This document shows, piece by piece, positions 3,367-54,337 of a stretch of 64,000 nt of DNA (positions are counted from its first letter, which is position 1; the number at the start of each line of letters is the position of its first letter). Origin of the DNA: Gloeomargaritales cyanobacterium VI4D9. Lineage in GTDB: Bacteria; Cyanobacteriota; Cyanobacteriia; Gloeomargaritales; Gloeomargaritaceae. The notes under the pieces were generated by a model. The model searched no databases, had not been told where the DNA came from, and saw only the letters and a program-made list of their open reading frames with translations. The stretch is from positions 905,157-969,156 of the forward strand of contig OV696605.1 in the NCBI GenBank assembly GCA_927797885.1, given 5' to 3'. The translations under genes and the position numbers were made by a program.

Positions 3367-3556
3367 TATTTTTAGAAAAACCATACACTTTCGGTACTTT
3401 GGGGATGGGGACTGTATCCCTGGGCTCTGCGATTCCCATAACTTGCAGAGCATCTGCCGAATTAATGCGCCGTTCTTTTTGCACCTTGTGGGGCAGTTCT
3501 GATGAGATTGGCTCCCCCTGGGCTTAGAATGAAAGCAAATACTGAGCGAGGGTTCT

Positions 3557-3655
3557 ATGGAAGCACTCACCTATACGGTTTTATTGGTCGGAGCGTTGGG
3601 GGTAATTTTTTTCGCCATCTTTTTCCGGGAACCCCCCCGCATTGACAGAAAATAG
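3557..3655 (+). CDS. psbT: Photosystem II protein T (PsbT)
   Basis: This is a 32-residue single-membrane-helix subunit of photosystem II, located at the dimer interface. The translation begins [20 protein letters not shown] and ends [11 protein letters not shown]. The start MEAL.Y and the FFREPPR end are the family signature. The stop codon ends at 3655 and the stop of the opposite-strand manC begins at 3656, so the two genes converge with no spacer. The gene is too short for ordinary ORF cut-offs. Promoter and ribosome site are in the 70 bases upstream (GAGCGAGGG lies near the start). Confidence 0.95.
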
Positions 3656-4681
3656 TCATAACTTATCCCCGTAGCCCCGTTCCTGGAGTTGCGCCAATAA
3701 TTTTTTGATTTCCTGGGTGCGGTCGGCGGCGGCCACTAGGGTAATTTTGCCATCCCGGACCACGATGACCTGGCTCAAGCCCAAGGTCGCCACCAGTTCG
3801 TCCGGGTCGGTGCTGTAGATATGCACCCCATCGCTTTCCCAGTCCACCCACTGGGCAGGTAGGGGGTTGTGTGCCAGCCGCTCCAAACTCCGCCAGTCCC
3901 CCAAATCATCCCATGCGAAAGTCACGGGCAGTACCAAGGCCCGCTGGGTGTGTTCCATCACCGCATAGTCAAGGCTGATTTTCGGGAGTTGGGCATAGGC
4001 CGCCACCCCGGATTGAGCCAGGCTCGTGGTAATGGCTGGGGCGTATTGGTTCAGTTCTTGCCACATCACCCCCGCCGGGAACAGAAACATCCCACTGTTC
4101 CAGCTATAGCCCCCGCTGGCTAACAACTGCACCGCCTGGGCTAAATCCGGTTTTTCCGTGAACCGCACCACCCGGTATGCCCCGCCGCTGACCGCCTCCC
4201 CCTGCTGGATGTAGCCATAACCCGTAGCCGGATGGGTGGGGGTAATCCCCAAAGTGACAATTCCCTGCATCTGCGCCGCCACCGCTACCGCCTGGGCTAA
4301 GGTTTGCTGAAATTGTCCTGTATCAGGAATCCAGTGATCCGCCGGGAAAATGCCTACAATTACCTCATCTCCGTACTGCTGCAGTAATTTCTGCGTCACC
4401 CAGGCCACCGCCACCGCCGTATCCCGGGGCTGGGGTTCCCCCAAGATGCGCTCCGGGGGCAGATGGGGACAATGCTCCCGCACCAAGGGCACCAAATCCA
4501 TCCGGGTCACTACCCAGACATCCTCCGCCCAATCCGGCAAGCGGGCGACCGTATTTTGTAATAAACTTTTGCCGCTCCCATCCAGGGATAGGAACTGCTT
4601 GGGTTTCGCTAAACGGCTCAAAGGCCAGAACCGCTCCCCTCTGCCCCCCGCCAAAATTACCGGTATGAATGTTGCGTCCAT
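3656..4681 (-). CDS. manC: Mannose-1-phosphate guanylyltransferase
   Basis: This 341-residue enzyme makes GDP-mannose from mannose-1-phosphate and GTP for surface polysaccharides. The N-terminal nucleotidyltransferase signature VILAGGRGERFWPLSR and the PKQFLSL substrate loop are present, followed by FPADHW and FTEKPD. The length corresponds to a single-domain enzyme without the C-terminal phosphomannose isomerase domain found in longer ManC proteins. It is the last gene of a minus-strand run (rnc, hemC, glmU, rsmI, unknown, manC), although the genes need not form one operon. Confidence 0.93.
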   Translation of the reverse strand: MDATFIPVILAGGRGERFWPLSRLAKPKQFLSLDGSGKSLLQNTVARLPDWAEDVWVVTRMDLVPLVREHCPHLPPERILGEPQPRDTAVAVAWVTQKLLQQYGDEVIVGIFPADHWIPDTGQFQQTLAQAVAVAAQMQGIVTLGITPTHPATGYGYIQQGEAVSGGAYRVVRFTEKPDLAQAVQLLASGGYSWNSGMFLFPAGVMWQELNQYAPAITTSLAQSGVAAYAQLPKISLDYAVMEHTQRALVLPVTFAWDDLGDWRSLERLAHNPLPAQWVDWESDGVHIYSTDPDELVATLGLSQVIVVRDGKITLVAAADRTQEIKKLLAQLQERGYGDKL

Positions 4682-4711
4682 CCCGCTCCCCCGATTCGCC
4701 TTTAGCCTAAC

Positions 4712-5470
4712 TCAAATCAGACGAAACCGTTTCAGCACATCCGTCAGTTCCGCATCCAGTTGTTGGGCTAACTCCTGTTCATCCTGGGGCATCAACCGCA
4801 ATTCATCGCTGATGCTAAAGGGAAAAATCGCCTCCTGCGCCTGCGGGGCGGGCAATTCCACCAATTTAATTTGATAGGGCTTTTTGGAAACCAGGGCGTA
4901 GCCTACTTCCAAACACACATTCGGGCTGGGAAACCCCTTGCCCTGGACGCTGGTGATCAAGGTGGTGTCGGCAATCACCATCAGGGCTTGGCGGATCAAC
5001 CGGCGCACATCCGTATCCAGGCGTACCGTGCCATCCGGGAGGCGGTGGGGGCGGGCGATGCGGAGCTTTTGCCCCAGGCGGTAGGTGCTGGCGATCTGCC
5101 CAACGGTCTGCTCAAGCGCCCGGTCAATCTGGGTACTGGCTTGGGGGTATTCGGTTTGGTAGCTGAAAAAAATCACCGGCGGGGAGGCGGGGGGAACTTC
5201 CGCCCGCACCAGATAGACTTCCCGGCTGACCAAATCCATGTTCGCCAACTCATAGGTGCCACTGCCTTCCAGGTAAAGTTCCACCTTTTCCCCGGCTAAA
5301 AAACTGCGAAACCAGGCCGACTGCTGGACAATTTGTGCATCATCTACAAAAAAACCCCGAAAAGCCGCCTTGAGCAAACTCTTTTTACTCAAACGCAAGG
5401 TGGGCGGCAAGGTTTCCACATCCGCCGGGAGCAGGGGGCGATCCAGGTGCCAGGCTTTAATGATTAACAT
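4712..5470 (-). CDS. Unknown protein with TIR-like/nucleotide-binding C-terminal fold
   Basis: I do not recognise the family securely. I take the start as the ATG at 5470 (MLIIKAWHLDRPLLP). An open frame extends 101 codons further upstream, but that part is an antisense shadow of rsmI rich in Pro and Arg. Residues about 125-230 contain VIFFSYQTE, then VIADTTLI and PSPNVCLEVGYAL. This layout (strand, Asp-rich turn, N-V-x-x-E-x-G-Y-A) resembles TIR-like and nucleoside deoxyribosyltransferase-like nucleotide-binding domains. The N-terminal 120 residues show no known motif. It lies between rsmI and manC on the same strand. The fold is an inference from motif spacing. Confidence 0.6.
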   Translation of the reverse strand: MLIIKAWHLDRPLLPADVETLPPTLRLSKKSLLKAAFRGFFVDDAQIVQQSAWFRSFLAGEKVELYLEGSGTYELANMDLVSREVYLVRAEVPPASPPVIFFSYQTEYPQASTQIDRALEQTVGQIASTYRLGQKLRIARPHRLPDGTVRLDTDVRRLIRQALMVIADTTLITSVQGKGFPSPNVCLEVGYALVSKKPYQIKLVELPAPQAQEAIFPFSISDELRLMPQDEQELAQQLDAELTDVLKRFRLI

Positions 5471-5520
5471 AGGAAGCGATGGCGGGGGTGTCCCATAGAT
5501 AGCAGGAACGGGCGCAACCG

Positions 5521-6372
5521 TCAACTCCCTGGGGCTTGGGCGGCGAGGGCAAGTTGGTACAGGGTACGGCGGGGCAAGCCGGTGGTTCGTGCTAATTCTT
5601 GGGCAATTTCCCGACATCCTAGCCCACTGGCCAACAGGCGTTGGATTTCTGGGAGTACCGCTTCGACAGCCAACCCGGGCTGGGGGGTGGCTCCTGCGAC
5701 CAGGACGGTAATTTCTCCTTTGGGGGGCTGGGCGTGAAAATGGCTGTGCGCCTGCCCTAGGGTACCCCGCCAAAATTCCTCATGGAGTTTGGTCAATTCC
5801 CGCGCCACCACACAGGGGCGTGCCTGCCCCAAGACCTGCCCCATATCCCCCAAGCTGGCCGCCAACCGGTGGGGAGCCTCATAAAAAATTAAAGTAGCCG
5901 GGGTGGTTGCAACACTGCGTAATACCTGCTGGCGGGCCGGACTTTTGGGGGGCAAAAAACCCAAAAATAAAAACCGATCCGTCGCCAAACCCCCTGCACA
6001 CAGAGCCGTCAAAGCCGCATTCGCCCCCGGAATCGGGGTCACGGGAATCTGCACCGCCAAACAAGCCTGCACCAAGGCCGTCCCCGGGTCGCTGATCCCC
6101 GGCATCCCCGCATCACAGACCAGGGCAATCTGTTCCCCCCGGTGCAAACGGGTCAACAATTCCCCCTGCCGCTGCCGTTGGTTGTGCTGGTGGTAGCTGA
6201 TTTGGGGCGTGGTAATGCCAAAGTATTGCAACAATTTCCCCGTGTGCCGGGTATCTTCGGCGGCGATCACATCCACTTCCCGCAGTACCCGCACCGCCCG
6301 GAAGGTCATATCCTCCAAATTGCCAATCGGGGTGGCGACCAGATACAACCGCCCCTTAGGGACTGGGTTCAT
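5521..6372 (-). CDS. rsmI: 16S rRNA 2'-O-ribose C1402 methyltransferase RsmI
   Basis: RsmI methylates the 2'-O of C1402 in 16S rRNA using SAM. The 283-residue protein has the tetrapyrrole-methylase-like fold, seen as [54 protein letters not shown] and FYEAPHR. The C-terminal helical segment after VAGA is normal for the family. It overlaps the 3' end of glmU by 17 bases, so the two are probably co-transcribed. Confidence 0.95.
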
Positions 6373-7735
6373 GTTCCTGATGGCGCAGATAGGGAGGTCG
6401 CCAATGGGGTTTCACCACCTGCCGGGCCCGGGCGATCACCAGGGCATCATTGGGCACGTCCTCGGTAACGACGGAACCAGCGGCTACCGTCACCCCTGTC
6501 CCCAACGTCACCGGTGCTACCAAAACACTATTCGCCCCCAACTTACTGCCCTCCCCAATCACGGTGGGGTGTTTGTCCCGTCCATCAAAATTGGCGGTAA
6601 TCGTGCCCGCCCCCACGTTCACCTGTGCCCCCAGTTGGGCATCCCCCAAATAACTCAAATGTGCCACCCGGGAGTCACTCCCCACCTGGGTTTTTTTAAT
6701 TTCCACAAAATTCCCCACCCGGCAGTGCGCCTCCACTTCCGTCTGCTCCCGGATATGGGCAAAAGGACCCACCTGGCAATTAGATTGCACTGTGCTATTG
6801 GTAATCACAGAATACATAATCCGTACATCATTCCCAATCCGGCTATTTTCCAGCCAACAGCCAGGACCAATATGACTGCCCGTTCCTACCACCGTCCGTC
6901 CCCGCAGGTGCGTCTGGGGTTCCAAAATCACATCTGGAGCCAATTCCACCTCATCGTCCAGGGTGATGCTGAGCGGGTCAATCATCGTCACCCCCCGGCG
7001 CATCCATTCATCCCGCCACCGTTGGTACAGCAGTTGGGTCGCCGTGGCTAATTGCTTGCGGTCATTGATCCCCAAAATTTCCGCCACATCCAGAATGTCC
7101 ACCGCCCGTGCCGGTTTCAGCCATTGCACCGTATCGGTTAGGTAATATTCCTGCTGTTGATTGGCAGTGGTGAGTCGGGGCAGCACCTCCCGCAATTGGA
7201 GCCAGCGGAAGCAATAAATCCCCGCATTCACCCGTTGGTTTTGCCGTTGCGCCGGGGTGCAGTCCCGGTCCTCGATAATCGCACTCACCTGGAATTGCCC
7301 ATCACAGATCACCCGTCCATAGCCCGTCGGGTCGGGCAAAACGGCGGTCAACAGGGTCACCCCGTACTGCCCCTGCTCATGGGTGGCGACCAACTGCGCC
7401 AAGGTATGGGGGCGCAACAGCGGTACATCCCCATTCAGCACCAACAAATCCCCGGTAAAGTCCTGCAAATAGGGAACGAGTTGCTGTACCGCATGACCTG
7501 TGCCCAACAGGGGGGATTGCTCCACAAATTCCACCCCGGAGAGGTGCGCCAACGCCTGCTTTACCTGCGCCGCCCCGTGCCCCACCACCACCAGCAAGCG
7601 TTCCACCGCCAAACCCTGCACACTGCGGATCACCCGCTCCACCATTGGTTTCCCCGCCAAAGGATGCAGTACCTTCGGCAAATCCGACTTCATCCGGGTG
7701 CCCTTACCCGCCGCCAAAACCGCTACCGCAACCAT
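6356..7735 (-). CDS. glmU: Bifunctional GlmU (UDP-GlcNAc synthesis)
   Basis: GlmU acetylates glucosamine-1-phosphate and then uridylylates it to UDP-N-acetylglucosamine, the precursor of peptidoglycan. The 459-residue length is normal. The N-terminal uridyltransferase domain shows [20 protein letters not shown] and [10 protein letters not shown]. The C-terminal left-handed beta-helix shows hexapeptide repeats around [12 protein letters not shown], with the catalytic-region ANSVLVAPV. It precedes rsmI with a short overlap. Confidence 0.97.
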
Positions 7736-7799
7736 GATGTTTGCTGTTCAACCCCTGATGACTGTAACGGTTTCCTGGGGTGCCCGGCAAGGGGGTTTG

Positions 7800-8753
7800 T
7801 CAACCCCGCCCCACTTCGGCAAAAATTGCCTGCAAAATCGCCCCTGCCCCTTTGGCTCGTAGCTCCTGCGCCAAGGCTTTTCCCAAATCAACCGCCTGCG
7901 CCGCCTGCGTCACCACCCCCGTTTGGCACCCCGCCACCCGCTGTTGCCCATCCACACTCAACACCGCCCCGGTCAGGGTCAATGCCTGCCCCTGGAACTG
8001 GGAATGCACCCCAATCGGCACCTGACACCCCCCTTCCAACTCCCGCAAAAACGCCCGTTCCGCCTGACAACGTAATGCGGTTTCCGGGTGGTTCAATCCC
8101 TGCAACAACCCCAATACCTGCTCATCCCCCGCCCGGCATTGTACCCCCAACGCCCCCTGCCCCACCGCATACAGGGAAACTTCCGGTTCCAGCACCTCAC
8201 TCACCCGGTCGCCCCAGCCCAGCCGCCGCAGACCCGCCACCGCCAGGATCAACCCGTCGTATTCCCCCGCATCCAACTTGCGTAACCGGGTATTCAGATT
8301 CCCCCGGATGTCCTTAAACGCCAAATCGGGAAAATGATGCCGCAATTGTGCCAAACGCCGTAATGAAGATGTACCAATCACCGTCCCAGGAGGTAATTCA
8401 GCCAAAGGCGTGCCCTGCCAACGGGGGTGCAGTACCAGGGCATCCCGGGGTTCCTCCCGCTCCGTAATCGCCCCCAACGTCAAACCCTCCGGCATTTGGG
8501 TGGGCAAATCCTTGAGGGAATGCACCGCCACATCCACCTCCTGGCGCAGTAACGCCTGTTCCAATTCCTTAGTAAACAAGCCCTTATCGCCGATTTTCGC
8601 CAGCGCCACATCCAGGATTTTGTCCCCCTGGGTGGTCATGGTTACCACCGGAAATTCCTGGTCGGGGTAATGCTTTTGTAATTCTCCCTGCACCCAATGG
8701 GTTTGGACGAGGGCGAGTTGACTTTGGCGGGAACCAATGCGGGTGATACTCAT
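7800..8753 (-). CDS. hemC: Hydroxymethylbilane synthase (porphobilinogen deaminase)
   Basis: HemC polymerises four porphobilinogens into hydroxymethylbilane, feeding haem and chlorophyll synthesis. The protein begins [15 protein letters not shown] and carries the [14 protein letters not shown] and [12 protein letters not shown] blocks. The dipyrromethane-cofactor cysteine is in GGCQVPIG near residue 240. I prefer the ATG at 8753 over a TTG five codons upstream. The length of 317 residues is usual. Confidence 0.96.
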
Positions 8754-8812
8754 GGGGCAAGCGGGCAACCAAGGTTTGGGCTGACTCTATAGTGTACTGG
8801 TAAATGGGGGCG

Positions 8813-9511
8813 TTACCCCATATCCCCCACCAACACCCCCCACGCCTGTTGCGCCGCCGCCTGCTGTGCCGCCTTGATGGATTCCCCCTGCCCCACCCCC
8901 AGCAACCGTTTTTGCACATACACCCGTGCCGTAAATCGTTCCGGCGTGCCCGAGAGGGATTCGGTTTGGTAGGTTGGCAGGACTTTGTAATGCTCTTGTG
9001 TCCATTCTTGCAGGGCATTTTTGTAATTCAACCGGGCGGGGTCTTGCAAAACCCGTTGGGCGGACTTGTGCCAGTGGGGATAAAAACAGGGTTGTAATAC
9101 TTTTGTACTGCCCACACTTAGGTAAATCGCCCCCACCACCGCTTCCAAAATATCCGCCAGCCAGATGCCCTGGGGACTGAGACGGGTAGATGCCAGGACA
9201 AAATCCGCCAAACCATAGTCCTCACTGATCTGCCGTAGCAACCGGTTACTCACCAGGACAGAGCGCAGGGCGGTGTAGTCTCCCACCGAGGTTTGGGGGT
9301 AGTGGCGCCAGAGGTAATCCGCCGCTAACAATCGCAGTACGCCATCCCCGACAAATTCCAAGGGTTCGTAATTAGATTGGGGGTCAAAACTGCTGTGGGT
9401 CAGGGCTTGATCCAGCAAGTTCCAATTGATGTTGACCGGCTCGATGCCCAACCGTTGCAGGAGTTTTTGCAGTTCATGGTACCGGCGAGAACCAGGGGGA
9501 ATGCCAGTCAT
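8813..9511 (-). CDS. rnc: Ribonuclease III
   Basis: RNase III cleaves double-stranded RNA in rRNA and mRNA processing. The catalytic signature is YEPLEFVGDGVLRLL, with the second acidic cluster at DILEAVVGAIY. A double-stranded-RNA-binding domain follows (YKNALQEWTQ through AAQQAAAQQAW). The ATG at 9511 gives 232 residues; the frame extends to a TTG at 9541, which is less likely. The upstream region holds a family A MITE within 50 bases of the start, which may affect its promoter. Confidence 0.95.
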   Translation of the reverse strand: MTGIPPGSRRYHELQKLLQRLGIEPVNINWNLLDQALTHSSFDPQSNYEPLEFVGDGVLRLLAADYLWRHYPQTSVGDYTALRSVLVSNRLLRQISEDYGLADFVLASTRLSPQGIWLADILEAVVGAIYLSVGSTKVLQPCFYPHWHKSAQRVLQDPARLNYKNALQEWTQEHYKVLPTYQTESLSGTPERFTARVYVQKRLLGVGQGESIKAAQQAAAQQAWGVLVGDMG

Positions 9512-9559
9512 AGAATGTTTACAATCACCAAACCCAGACAACTTTCAATAGGACACATG

Positions 9560-9674
9560 TAGCAATCCTACTTAATTTACAAACAAAAATTTTCCAGAAC
9601 CATACACCGCAGGTGCTTCTTTCACGGGGGCGGTGCCCCTGCGACCCCTATTCTATTCTCATTTAGACTTGCTA
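9560..9674. mobile_element. MITE family A, complete copy
   Basis: A 115-bp element with terminal inverted repeats TAGCAATCCTA at the left and TAGACTTGCTA at the right. It contains an internal GGGGGCGGTGCCCCTGCGACCCC hairpin-prone core. It is nearly identical to the copy at 59999-60114. The right side is followed by TA, while the left flank reads TG, so the TA target duplication has decayed on one side. The ends match those of the IS630-family element at 54012-55257. Confidence 0.85.
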
Positions 9675-10298
9675 TAACATCCCAAATTTCCAGGACTTTA
9701 TGCTTGTTATATACTTTCATCAAAGTAATCATTATCTATCCTTTTAACTGGATATAGAGACACCGTTGAAACCCCCACATCATTCTCTATCATTAAATTA
9801 GTTAATTGCTCACCATCAATCAGGACAATCTTGCTACCAATTTGAGATACATAACTTCTCGCCTCATCTGTAAATCGGGAAGTTGTGATAAATATCCCTT
9901 TGTTAGCTTTTTGCCCTTGTAGTGCCCCTACAAATTGCATGATGTCAGGTCTGCCTACAGGTGTGTCATCCCACCGCTTTGCCTGAATGTAAATAACATC
10001 AAGACCAAGTTTATCCTCTTTGATAATGCCGTCAATTCCGCCATCGCCGCTTTTGCCAATCGCTCTGCCAGCGTCAGAACGAGAACCGCCGTATCCCATT
10101 TTGACCAAGAGTTCAACGACTACACGCTCAAAAAATGCCGGTGAGATTGCCTTGAGTTTAACAAGTAATTCATCGGCTAACTCATCACGCAGATTTTTGT
10201 AGGCAAATTCTAAAGCCTCAGATGGAGTGGTAGTGGAAACATCTGATATTAATTTGATTTCTTCTTCGCCATTTTTTGTTATTGTTCCTTTCGGCTTC

Positions 10299-10440
10299 GT
10301 GACATACTCCCGACGCTCATGCTGACGCATAGGGCGCGGGCTTCCCTCCCTCGCGGTTGGGTATTCCTGCCCCACGCCACTTATCTAGGTCATAGACCCC
10401 CGACAGACCGACTTGACAGGCTGTTTCCGTTCCCCAGAGT
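10299..10440 (-). ncRNA. Predicted omega RNA (reRNA) of TnpB
   Basis: In this family the guide RNA overlaps the tnpB 3' end and the transposon right end, and the guide is the sequence just outside the element. By that rule the guide begins at 10298 (minus strand) and reads GAAGCCGAAAGGAACAATAA, which is the mrr linker. The 5' limit is a guess; no structure was computed. Confidence 0.45.
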
Positions 10441-11585
10441 CCCTGGGCTACTACGTTCTCTAGTCCACGATGCAAAACCATCTCTGCTGCCGCATGGTCA
10501 CGATGAGTCCGATAACCACACTCAGGGCAATGATGTTCTCTGGCTTCCAGCCCTTTGCTGACAGTAGCAAGGCAGGATGGGCAGGTTTGGCTGGTGCCGT
10601 TAGGGTTGACCTTTTCAAAGTACACCCCACGTTTCCAACACACCCATTCCGTCAGAGACAGGAATTGTCCAAAAGCAGCATCAACACAATCTTTTCGCAG
10701 CATTCCCCGCGTCAGCCCCGTGACGTTGAGGTCTTCTGCAAAGATAGTTTGCGCTTGGTCGCAAAGTTTATGAGCCGTTTTCAGATGAAAATCTTTACGA
10801 CGGTTTGTAATGCGGTGGTGCATTCTGGCCACTTTCGTTTGCGCCTTCTCCCAGTTTCGAGACCCTTTATGTTTTCGTGCCGCCCTGCGTTGCAGCAATT
10901 TCAGCTTGCGTTGCATCGACTTGAAAAACTTGGGGCGCTCTTGGAAGCTGCCATCCGAAACGGTCAAGAATCGCTCCAATCCAAGGTCAATCCCAATTGC
11001 CCGACCACAAACAGGAGCATCGGGAACCGATACATCCGATTCGATGGTGACGATAACGTACCATTGCGTCCCTCTTGCCTTGGACAGTACCCTCACCTGC
11101 TTCACCTTGAATCCGTCAGGGATGGGGCGATGCAGGTTGATAGGCACTTCTCCTATCTTCGGCAGCTTGATAGCAAAGCCGTTGACCGGGTTGTCCTTGA
11201 ACTGGGGAAACACAAAGGATTTGAGTTGACCAACCTTTTTGAAGCGCGGGAATCCGTGTCCACGCCTCTGAAACGCTTCCCAGGTATCATGCAGCCTGCG
11301 AATCGTAGTTTGCAAAACCTGAGAATGCACCTTGCCCAAATGTGGAAATTGTTTCTTAGCTTTGGGCAAGTTGTTTTGCTGACGGTGATAAGACGGAAAC
11401 GGCTCATCGGCAGGGATAATGTATTCCTTCTCCAAGGAGCATCTATCTACCGGACACTTACGCGAAGCAATCCAGTCTTTGAGTTCGCGCAAAGCGTAGT
11501 TATACACGCCTCTGCACGTCTCAAGCCACTCCAGCATTTCAGTTCGCTGCATGGCATCTGGATAGATTCGGTAGGTGTAGTTCAT
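10317..11585 (-). CDS. tnpB: TnpB RNA-guided nuclease
   Basis: TnpB proteins of IS605-type elements are RNA-guided DNA nucleases related to Cas12. The start MNYTYRIYPDAMQ is the usual N-terminus; I use the ATG at 11585. The RuvC core is visible as IGIDLGLE (Asp), FAEDLNV (Glu) and HRDHAAAEM (Asp). It is interrupted by a zinc finger CPSC...CPEC before the last acidic residue. All key residues are present, so the protein may be active. The length of 422 residues is normal. Its 3' end abuts the element's right end. Confidence 0.93.
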   Translation of the reverse strand: MNYTYRIYPDAMQRTEMLEWLETCRGVYNYALRELKDWIASRKCPVDRCSLEKEYIIPADEPFPSYHRQQNNLPKAKKQFPHLGKVHSQVLQTTIRRLHDTWEAFQRRGHGFPRFKKVGQLKSFVFPQFKDNPVNGFAIKLPKIGEVPINLHRPIPDGFKVKQVRVLSKARGTQWYVIVTIESDVSVPDAPVCGRAIGIDLGLERFLTVSDGSFQERPKFFKSMQRKLKLLQRRAARKHKGSRNWEKAQTKVARMHHRITNRRKDFHLKTAHKLCDQAQTIFAEDLNVTGLTRGMLRKDCVDAAFGQFLSLTEWVCWKRGVYFEKVNPNGTSQTCPSCLATVSKGLEAREHHCPECGYRTHRDHAAAEMVLHRGLENVVAQGLWGTETACQVGLSGVYDLDKWRGAGIPNREGGKPAPYASA

Positions 11586-12143
11586 TGTCAGCATAGCTAC
11601 ATTTTACGACAGGTTATAGCCGCTGGCAAATGCTTGTCTCATCCCCATCGAGGGGAACAAAAACACAAGGAGGTCGTTTAAAATGTACAATTTGACTGCC
11701 GGCCATTTGGCTGTTATTTCCAGACTAGAGAGTTTAGGTTTAAATTCAAGAAATTCAGGGTATCTCTCAAGCGTTTTAACATCTATAAACTGGGGTTGTT
11801 CAGCGAGCAGTTCACGTCCCCGCTCGGTAATTCGATAGTATCCTCTACGGGTAGGTTCTAGCAGTCCAGCTTTTTTCATATACGTTGCCGCCCAGCCCAC
11901 TCGGTTCACAAAGGTAAACTGGGTTCCACTGGGAAGCATTTCTTTGAGGTCTTCTTCCGTCAGATTTAATTCTTGTGCTAAAGCCTCAACTGCTTTATTT
12001 GTGGATATTTCACCATCAGCAACTCCGGCATACCGAAGCAAAGGCAACATCAGACTTTGGTAATCAGGTAGTGCCATTGAGAACTATACCCCTCATCTTT
12101 ACTATTATTTTTACACTATTTTTTGGGGTGTCGAGCATCAATA

Positions 12144-12343
12144 AGTAGCTCTATTTATTGATTTTTGTACTTACACGGCAGGTTTAGTAGCCCTATTCTC
12201 TCGTTAGTGATTATCAATAACCTAGGGGGCATTCTCAATAGCTGTGACTTGATAGAGGTACTCTAATATCTATGAACATCTATAAAACCTAGTAATCCTA
12301 GTACAAAATTTTATTCCCATCTTTTGAATAAATAGAGGTGCCC
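12144..12343. mobile_element. Two decayed family B MITEs side by side
   Basis: Bases 12144-12262 resemble the copy at 29560-29680 (shared TATTGATTTTTGTACTTACA and ATTATCAATAAC). Bases 12262-12343 resemble, in reverse, the start of the copy at 53450, ending AATAGAGGTGCCC. Both are degraded. Confidence 0.65.
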
Positions 12344-12721
12344 TATAATAGAATTGACTTGGACAAATGCTATGAAATACTTAGACCAATGAGTTGTTAA
12401 TTCCTGGCACCACATCCCAACATGAAGATCAAGGTGGTGCTATCTTTGTAATGATCAAAAAATGGCAACAAGGACGGCGGGTAGGTGGCTTTACTTCTCC
12501 AGGGAGAAGCGTCACGGGGTAGGGTTAGACATTGCTATCCATGAGATAGGGCTTTGCGAGAATTTACCACCTAGAAGTTAGAGAGCTTACCGTCTGCAAT
12601 GGCATCCACTCCGTTAGGAAGGCATGGTGCTGATTGTGGTAATATTGTAATGACAAACAATTACTTGGATGGCACTGCCTGATTCGCAATAGCCTAATTT
12701 TGCGGGGAAGTCATCACCTGA
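12344..12721. other. Non-coding stretch upstream of the mrr remnant and downstream of dprA
   Basis: I see no gene or RNA gene here. At about 12435-12457 the sequence GTGGTGCTATCTTTGTAATG closely matches an end of the IS1 element at 55287-56066, so it may be a scar of a lost IS1 copy. The rest is unassigned. Confidence 0.4.
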
Positions 12722-13801
12722 TCAACGCTGATAACGGAGTCCCGGTAATTGGGTAATGTGACCGCTCAGTTCCAATTCCAAGAGGGCGTTGGCTACCTGA
12801 TCTGTCGGTTGACCGGACTGGGCGACAATTGCATCAAAAGTGATCGGTTCCGAGGAAATCAGGGCGAAAATCCCCGCCAACTCCGGGGGCACCTCGGGTA
12901 ACGTTGTAGCTAAAGGGGGAGTCGCTCCCAGGAGTTCCAGCAAATGTTCCACCCCCAAGAGCATCTGCGCCCCTTGATTGATCAAATGTAAACATCCCAG
13001 GGCGGCGGGATTGTCCAGGGAACCGGGCAGGACATACACATCCCGATCGTACTGACAAGCTAATTCCGCCGTGATCAACGCCCCGGAGTGCAGGGGGGCT
13101 TCCGTAATCACAATCGCCCGACACAAACCCGCAATAATCCGATTCCGCCGGGGGAAATGGGTGCGGTCTGGTCCAGTTCCAGCCGGATATTCGCTGAGCA
13201 AGACCCCCTGAATGCTAATATCCTGGTGCAATTGCCGATTCCCCGTCGGGTACACCTGATCCACCCCCGTACCCAACACCGCCCAGGTGCGTCCCCCAGC
13301 CTGCAAACAAGTGCGATGGGCAGTGGTGTCAATCCCTGCCGCCAAGCCGGAAACCACCCCCCAGCCCTGGCTCACTAACCCTTGCACCAGTTTTTCCGTC
13401 CATTTACGCCCATAGGCTGAAGGCTCCCGGGTGCCCACCACCCCAATCATCGGCATTGCCCCGCTACATTCGGCGGGTTGGGGATGCCCCGCATAGTACA
13501 AAATCGGCGGTGGGTCGGGAATTTCCCGCAATAATTGGGGATAATCCGCATCCGCCGGTGTCCAGAAATGGGGATTTTTAGCAATATATTGTTCATACAA
13601 AGTCTGTGGGTCAAGCTGGGGACGGGTCGCCAAAATCGTGGTCACTAATTGCAACCCCAGCCCCGGCACTGCCAGCAATTCCTCCCCCTCAGCCGCCCAA
13701 GCTCGCTCCAGACTGCCAAATTTTTGCCACAACCGTTGCAGGAGTACCGCCCCAAGCCCCGGAATTTCCCTCCAGGCGAACCAGTAGGCGGCTTCCGCCA
13801 T
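12722..13801 (-). CDS. dprA: DNA processing protein DprA
   Basis: DprA loads RecA onto incoming single-stranded DNA during natural transformation. The Rossmann-like core shows VGTREPSAYG, GLAAGIDTTAHR and VLGTGVDQVYP. The phosphate-loop region FPRRNRIIAGL and SGALITAELA follow. An N-terminal helix-hairpin-helix (IPGLGAVLLQRL) and a C-terminal winged-helix-like end are present. The length of 359 residues is normal. Its ATG overlaps the stop of the upstream peroxiredoxin (TAATG), so the two are translationally coupled. Confidence 0.95.
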   Translation of the reverse strand: MAEAAYWFAWREIPGLGAVLLQRLWQKFGSLERAWAAEGEELLAVPGLGLQLVTTILATRPQLDPQTLYEQYIAKNPHFWTPADADYPQLLREIPDPPPILYYAGHPQPAECSGAMPMIGVVGTREPSAYGRKWTEKLVQGLVSQGWGVVSGLAAGIDTTAHRTCLQAGGRTWAVLGTGVDQVYPTGNRQLHQDISIQGVLLSEYPAGTGPDRTHFPRRNRIIAGLCRAIVITEAPLHSGALITAELACQYDRDVYVLPGSLDNPAALGCLHLINQGAQMLLGVEHLLELLGATPPLATTLPEVPPELAGIFALISSEPITFDAIVAQSGQPTDQVANALLELELSGHITQLPGLRYQR

Positions 13802-54011: not shown

Positions 54012-54337
54012 TAGCAATCCTAGTTTGATTTAGAACGGTTAAGTGGGCTATACTAACTAATTAAAGCGTGAGAGGCACCACTGAGGAGGTAAGCATGCTG
54101 ACCTGTACAAAGCCAGAAATGGTTGCTCTTTTAGGGGAATTTATCCGCAGTACTTCTGATGTAAGGGAACTGAAACGCGCCTTGGCAGTAAGAATGGCCA
54201 TAGCAGGTAAACCTTATGGTGAAATTGCCGAATTATTAGAAGTCTATAAGTCGTTTATTACTCGCTGGAAACAAGAGTTTTATGAAAAAGGAATTGAGGG
54301 ACTTAAACTTGGTTATCATGGTAGAAAAAGCCACCTA

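What the first reader, a model, noticed from the sequence alone, without database searches (positions are those of the whole stretch)
9707..12077. mrr restriction gene silenced by a TnpB element whose predicted guide is mrr itself
The element sits in the Mrr linker. The sequence following the right end, which serves as the guide in TnpB omega RNAs, is the mrr linker, so TnpB would cut any restored mrr allele beside a suitable motif. This would keep a restriction gene switched off.
Basis: partly seen in the sequence, partly recalled or inferred. Interest (0 to 1): 0.55.

Follow-up and report, generated by a model that had tools for sequence, protein, structure and literature searches.

The report
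Stranded TnpB element inside mrr gene
A bacterial restriction gene (mrr) is split by a small jumping-gene relic that still encodes an apparently intact RNA-guided nuclease whose predicted guide matches the unsplit version of that same gene; this is how such elements normally hold on to their site, so it is a well-delimited new example rather than a new kind of system.

Summary
A same-genus genome carries the intact, empty mrr and defines the insert exactly: 1,441 bp, window 10299-11739, no target duplication, left flank TTTAA, right end ...GTCAC, then the mrr linker as predicted guide. TnpB is full length with aligned RuvC residues; the right-end RNA fold is supported by covariation. TTTAA with a guide starting straight after a CAC-ending scaffold is an experimentally shown TnpB arrangement.

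A guide matching the interrupted site is the default for every TnpB element, not evidence of selection to silence restriction; none of nine relatives examined sits in a recognised restriction gene. Two new facts matter: the canonical left end is replaced by 82 bp of unknown origin, and the genome has no intact TnpA, so the element looks stranded and mrr is unlikely to be restored by excision. A patch of raised divergence against the insertion hints, weakly, at arrival by homologous recombination (homing).

Best reading: a transposition-defective IS200/IS605-type TnpB that can persist or spread only by homing into empty mrr alleles; mrr loss is a by-product. New member of a known kind; expression and cleavage untested.

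The parts
11740..12077 (-). 5' part of mrr (Mrr_N, about 113 codons); its ORF runs on to 11604 inside the insert
   Evidence: Pfam PF14338; BLAST to empty allele L008
11740..11744 (-). TTTAA, target-adjacent motif at the left junction, present in the empty allele
   Evidence: NTTAA at the left of 9 of 9 relatives
10299..11739 (-). the whole foreign insert, 1,441 bp
   Evidence: exact junctions by comparison with G003 empty mrr
11658..11739 (-). 82 bp of unknown origin in place of the canonical left end
   Evidence: homology to relatives starts at insert position 83 or later; one 27-base match judged chance in 388 class genomes, none in plasmids
10317..11594 (-). tnpB, 425 aa, RuvC D/E/D and zinc-finger cysteines present
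   Evidence: alignment to ISDra2 TnpB 8bf8
10344..10361 (-). omega-RNA hairpin 1 (2 of 7 pairs broken in this copy)
   Evidence: alignment A1 and pair counts
10309..10340 (-). omega-RNA / right-end hairpin 2 (1 of 9 pairs broken in this copy)
10299..10303 (-). GTCAC, right end of the element and 3' end of the RNA scaffold
10283..10298 (-). predicted 16-nt guide GAAGCCGAAAGGAACA = start of the mrr C-terminal part
   Evidence: directly after GTCAC; G003 target differs at position 6
9707..10298 (-). 3' part of mrr (Mrr_cat); its frame has possible starts GTG 10375 and ATG 10330 inside the element
   Evidence: Pfam PF04471, ORF list

Best explanation
A TnpB-only element of the IS200/IS605 kind sits in the mrr linker between the motif TTTAA and the sequence that now serves as its guide. 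Shown: exact junctions, the motif, the canonical right end, an open tnpB with catalytic residues, a right-end RNA fold with covariation, mrr split in two. Inferred: transcription through the right end yields an omega RNA whose guide is mrr sequence; the complex ignores the occupied allele (guide preceded by GTCAC, not TTTAA) and cuts empty mrr alleles, whose repair from an occupied copy reinstates the element. Since the left end and the genome's TnpA are both defective, this homing route is the only evident one left; it would work between chromosome copies (the host is probably a cyanobacterium, many of which are polyploid: recalled) or on incoming DNA. Loss of mrr is a by-product of the insertion, not a demonstrated purpose.
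For: Empty allele and junctions, continuous linker in homologues. Right end and NTTAA in 9 of 9 relatives. Residues aligned with ISDra2 TnpB. RNA hairpins: 91.7% of 253 cells paired, 10 of 16 pairs changed on both sides, 0 of 500 shuffles as high on either measure. TTTAA/NTTAA as cognate motif and guide starting directly after UUCAC shown for Sulfolobus TnpB7 (PMC11043419, passages); cutting of, and homing into, the transposon-less allele proposed for ISDra2 (PMC8612924, passages); IS spread through TnpB cutting shown in plasmids (PMC11870625, passages). tnpB dN/dS 0.07-0.13 against six relatives, like pairs among them (0.06-0.14). No motif+guide site in the own genome. No intact TnpA. Divergence patch against the insertion: dS 0.74 over the last 40 codons of the N part versus 0.10 and 0.13 in the rest of mrr.
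Against: No expression or cleavage data. Hairpin 1 has 2 of 7 pairs broken in this copy, and the single-strand fold of the region is no better than shuffles (z 0.20); one covariation measure (further pair types) is reached by 100 of 500 shuffles. The left 82 bp are unexplained although the junction falls exactly at TTTAA. The only empty allele known mismatches the guide at position 6. The divergence patch only just tops many 40-codon windows (0.393; next hemC 0.387; uncorrected Fisher p 4.8e-4) and its polarity cannot be assigned.
Confidence: 0.58

Rival explanations
1. Dead fossil: after insertion the element lost its left end and its omega RNA is decaying; TnpB is no longer made or active, and mrr is simply a pseudogene.
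For: Left end lost; 3 of 16 RNA pairs broken in this copy; the other TnpB matches in the genome are partial or contain stops (frames of 169, 212 and 297 aa) and a solo right-end relic exists; polarised changes on the window branch in the mrr C part are 6 in nonsynonymous against 3 in synonymous codons.
Against: tnpB is open over 425 codons with low dN/dS and intact catalytic residues, though this mostly reflects history before the insertion.
Confidence: 0.3
2. Selected silencing device: the element is kept because it holds the type IV restriction gene off, e.g. to tolerate an incoming DNA methylation pattern.
For: The guide matches mrr; Mrr-type enzymes attack modified DNA (recalled); the joined halves would still be one open frame.
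Against: A self-site guide is universal for TnpB; none of 9 relatives with both ends located sits in a recognisable restriction gene; methyltransferases were not examined.
Confidence: 0.07
3. Split but working Mrr: the catalytic half is translated from starts inside the element (GTG 10375 or ATG 10330) and the halves act separately.
For: The Mrr_cat frame runs into the element with possible starts that overlap the tnpB end; GGAGGG precedes the ATG.
Against: Spacing from GGAGG to ATG is long (14 nt); no ribosome data; the two domains are joined in the intact homologues read.
Confidence: 0.05

Closest known systems
ISDra2 TnpB and donor-joint homing (PMC8612924)
   Same: TnpB with RuvC acidic residues, right-end RNA, guide taken from the flank, target = empty site next to the left-hand motif
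   Different: ISDra2 has TnpA and both ends; here the left end is replaced and no intact TnpA is in the genome; motif TTTAA, not TTGAT
Sulfolobus islandicus IS605-type TnpB7 (PMC11043419)
   Same: motif TTTAA (NTTAA equally good), guide begins immediately after a CAC-ending scaffold
   Different: archaeal; sequence relationship not tested here
TnpB gene drive of insertion sequences in plasmids (PMC11870625, preprint)
   Same: TnpB cuts copies without the IS and so spreads the IS allele
   Different: plasmids and a complete IS there; a chromosomal gene, a defective element and no experiment here
Homing endonuclease genes / group I intron homing (recalled)
   Same: copying into the empty allele by cut and repair, possible co-conversion of flanks
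   Different: RNA-guided; interrupts the gene without splicing (no Rfam match)

Membership tests
IS200/IS605-family TnpB nuclease | OrfB_IS605 and TNB (zinc-finger/RuvC) domains | tested here: met
   Pfam and NCBIfam matches
IS200/IS605-family TnpB nuclease | RuvC catalytic Asp/Glu/Asp | tested here: met
   GIDLG, AEDLN and HRDHAA align with ISDra2 TnpB 8bf8; which residues are catalytic is recalled, D191 also in a PMC8612924 legend
IS200/IS605-family TnpB nuclease | right-end RNA scaffold overlapping the tnpB 3' end, with conserved hairpins | tested here: met
   16-row alignment with covariation; 13 of 16 pairs kept in the window copy
IS200/IS605-family TnpB nuclease | RNA-guided DNA cleavage next to a motif | not testable with these tools
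   TTTAA is present in the empty allele; no assay
Mobile IS200/IS605 element | insertion 3' of the family motif, canonical right end, no target duplication | tested here: met
Mobile IS200/IS605 element | left end with subterminal hairpin | tested here: not met
   82 bp unlike the left ends of the six closest relatives; fold no better than shuffles
Mobile IS200/IS605 element | TnpA (Y1 transposase) in the element or intact in the genome | tested here: not met
   none in the element; two broken loci in the genome
TldR (nuclease-dead TnpB repressors) | loss of RuvC catalytic residues (feature recalled) | tested here: not met
   residues present
IStron (TnpB element with group I intron) | self-splicing group I intron in the element (feature recalled) | tested here: not met
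   no Rfam match at gathering threshold in 9500-12400
Mrr type IV restriction enzyme | Mrr_N and Mrr_cat in one protein | tested here: not met
   both domains present but on separate ORFs; intact in G003

The most novel reading that the evidence does not exclude
A TnpB that has lost transposition altogether persists as a pure RNA-guided homing gene at one chromosomal locus: it entered this genome by recombination from a diverged mrr allele that already carried it, leaving a co-conversion tract, and it now removes functional mrr alleles from sister chromosome copies or incoming DNA, a natural gene drive against a restriction gene.
Probability: 0.15. Interest if true: 0.65.

Novelty: new member of a known kind. 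Interest (0 to 1): 0.37.

Why it matters
TnpB homing has been argued from ISDra2 and shown in plasmid set-ups. Here a natural chromosomal locus offers an exact empty allele, an occupied allele with no evident transposition route left, a defined motif and a one-mismatch target in a sister genome, so whether TnpB alone can maintain or spread an allele could be tested directly. It also shows one way in which a restriction barrier can be lost and stay lost.

Tried and rejected
1) Source of the left 82 bp: in 388 genomes of the class one weak match (27 bases, 93%) besides the window itself; it lies in what I read as an FtsW/RodA-type gene and is taken as chance; none in plasmids; no convincing match in the other loci held. 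It is not mrr: homologous linkers are continuous. Unresolved.

2) Group I intron or other known RNA in the insert: no Rfam match.

3) Donor on a phage or plasmid: DNA matches are 60-80% identical and give no donor.

4) TnpB preferentially in restriction genes: flanks of the 9 relatives with both ends located were joined; one junction (L055) lies in a long frame, upstream of its first ATG, one in a 68-aa frame, seven in no spanning frame; none is recognisably a restriction gene by reading; Pfam was not run on them.

5) Co-conversion tract: 22 of 100 sites at 11761-11861 against 376 of 7,211 overall, but two other, intergenic windows are as divergent (12147-12247, 25; 8755-8854, 22) and hemC has a 40-codon window at 0.387 against 0.393. 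Kept as a hint only.

6) Structure prediction was not used: alignment to solved TnpB sufficed.

7) Literature: TnpB with Mrr and restriction endonuclease gave one unrelated paper (listing only); further searches are (listings only). Passages were read in PMC11043419, PMC8612924 and PMC11870625. No claim of absence goes beyond these searches.

Full report
What is there. On the minus strand, mrr begins at 12077, runs as Mrr_N to 11740, is interrupted, and resumes at 10298 as Mrr_cat to 9707. Between lies a TnpB ORF, 10317-11594. The host is a 3.16-Mb single-contig genome, probably a cyanobacterium (inferred from named relatives such as Pseudanabaena mucicola).

Empty site. Of 7 genus genomes, only the window's own and G003 have an mrr match; G003's is intact, 311 codons, 96% identical over the C part. 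BLAST places bases 2089/2090 of L008 against window 10298/11740. The insert is therefore 10299-11739, 1,441 bp, with no target duplication. Joining the halves gives one open frame of the same length as in G003, and close homologues share the EFLEFK-KLKGT-type linker. Synteny with G003 covers window 3488-12259 within the 40 kb compared.

Ends. The right end is ...GGGAGTATGTCAC| and matches relatives. Among nine relatives with both ends located, 9 of 9 have NTTAA on the left, begin with C and end in GGAGGATGTCAC. The window has TTTAA on the left but begins ACCTAAAC. Homology to the six closest relatives (86-92% protein identity) begins only at insert positions 83-104; their left regions carry a GTCCCGCGC...GCGTCGGGA-type hairpin that the window lacks. 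So a canonical motif and right junction are combined with a foreign 82-bp left part. How this arose is unexplained.

Nuclease and RNA. TnpB aligns with ISDra2 TnpB, including the three RuvC acidic residues and the zinc-finger cysteines. Pairwise dN/dS of tnpB against six relatives is 0.07-0.13, like pairs among them. In 16 aligned right ends two hairpins pair in 91.7% of 253 cells; 10 of 16 pairs change on both sides, 34 cells, covariation score 0.413, each with 0 of 500 shuffles as high; further pair types 18, reached by 100 of 500. The window keeps 13 of 16 pairs; two of the broken ones are in hairpin 1. Single-sequence folding alone is uninformative (z 0.20).

Guide and target. The sequence after GTCAC is the mrr linker. 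In Sulfolobus TnpB7 the cognate motif is TTTAA, NTTAA works equally well, and the guide starts directly after UUCAC; a mismatch at the 5th position was tolerated next to TTTAA (PMC11043419, passages). With TTTAA + 17 nt of guide and up to 3 mismatches, 7 genus genomes gave two places: the G003 mrr (1 mismatch) and the window's own right junction (3 mismatches, GTCAC in place of the motif); the backwards control gave one place, in G003, so 3-mismatch hits are near chance level. The occupied genome is thus not self-targeted, and empty mrr is the predicted target.

Mobility. Y1 transposase (PF01797) is found at two places in the own genome, both broken across frames. The other TnpB matches in the genome are partial. 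A solo right-end relic of the same kind lies at 1223243-1223288. With left end and TnpA gone, excision looks unlikely.

Hint of homing. Against G003, the last 40 codons of the Mrr_N part have dS 0.74, versus 0.10 in the preceding 72 codons (7-fold) and 0.13 in the C part; in five comparisons with or among homologues the same stretch is 1.0-2.0 times the preceding codons. Three further differences fall in the first 19 nt of the guide side, then none for 35 nt. Raised synonymous divergence is not explained by loss of function; a replaced tract around the insertion would explain it. But the patch only just tops the list of coding windows (0.393 against 0.387 in hemC; uncorrected p 4.8e-4), and two intergenic windows are as divergent. 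I treat it as weak support.

mrr decay. Changes polarised by three homologues: window branch, C part 6 in nonsynonymous and 3 in synonymous codons; G003 branch 3 and 9. N part: 9 and 5 against 8 and 7; 9 differences unresolved. Numbers are small; they fit loss of constraint in the window.

Mechanism. Shown: insertion, motif, right end, open tnpB, conserved RNA fold, split mrr. Inferred: RNA made from tnpB/mrr transcription, cutting of empty alleles, repair from the occupied copy. Selection for silencing is not shown: the guide-site identity is automatic, and no relative examined is in a recognisable restriction gene.

Verdict. Observation confirmed, interpretation partly supported; a new, cleanly delimited and apparently stranded member of a known kind.

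Noticed in passing
window 9556-9672: A 117-bp stretch between rnc and mrr, absent from G003 (BLAST joins 9555 to 9673), is one copy of a palindromic interspersed repeat with TATAGCAA-like ends: 41 matches in the own genome, 53 in G003, 44 in G004, 29 in G005, none in the other 3 genus genomes (about 40 candidates scored per genome, so lower bounds). Related pieces lie near 54336, 57921 and 60116. Looks like a MITE/REP family.
   Followed up: partly
L002 1501-1546 (G000:C1:1223243-1223288): Solo right-end/omega-RNA tail of the same TnpB family without a tnpB gene, upstream of what looks like a sigma-factor gene.
   Followed up: partly
window 11658-11739: On the + strand the foreign 82 bp carry AAGGAGG, 9 nt, ATG (11683) and a short open frame that runs out antisense into mrr; source unknown.
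   Followed up: partly
window 10330-10361: The two substitutions that break omega-RNA hairpin 1 create GGGAGGG upstream of an ATG in frame with Mrr_cat; spacing is long, so probably coincidence.
   Followed up: no
window 12259 onward versus L093/L094: Synteny with G003 ends just upstream of mrr: a dprA-like gene (12722-13801 -, name from reading) follows in the window but not in the 40-kb G003 stretch compared.
   Followed up: no
L061, L064: Two more distant relatives (60-61% identity) also lack the left-end hairpin but keep TTTAAC at the left, so left-end shortening recurs in this TnpB group.
   Followed up: no
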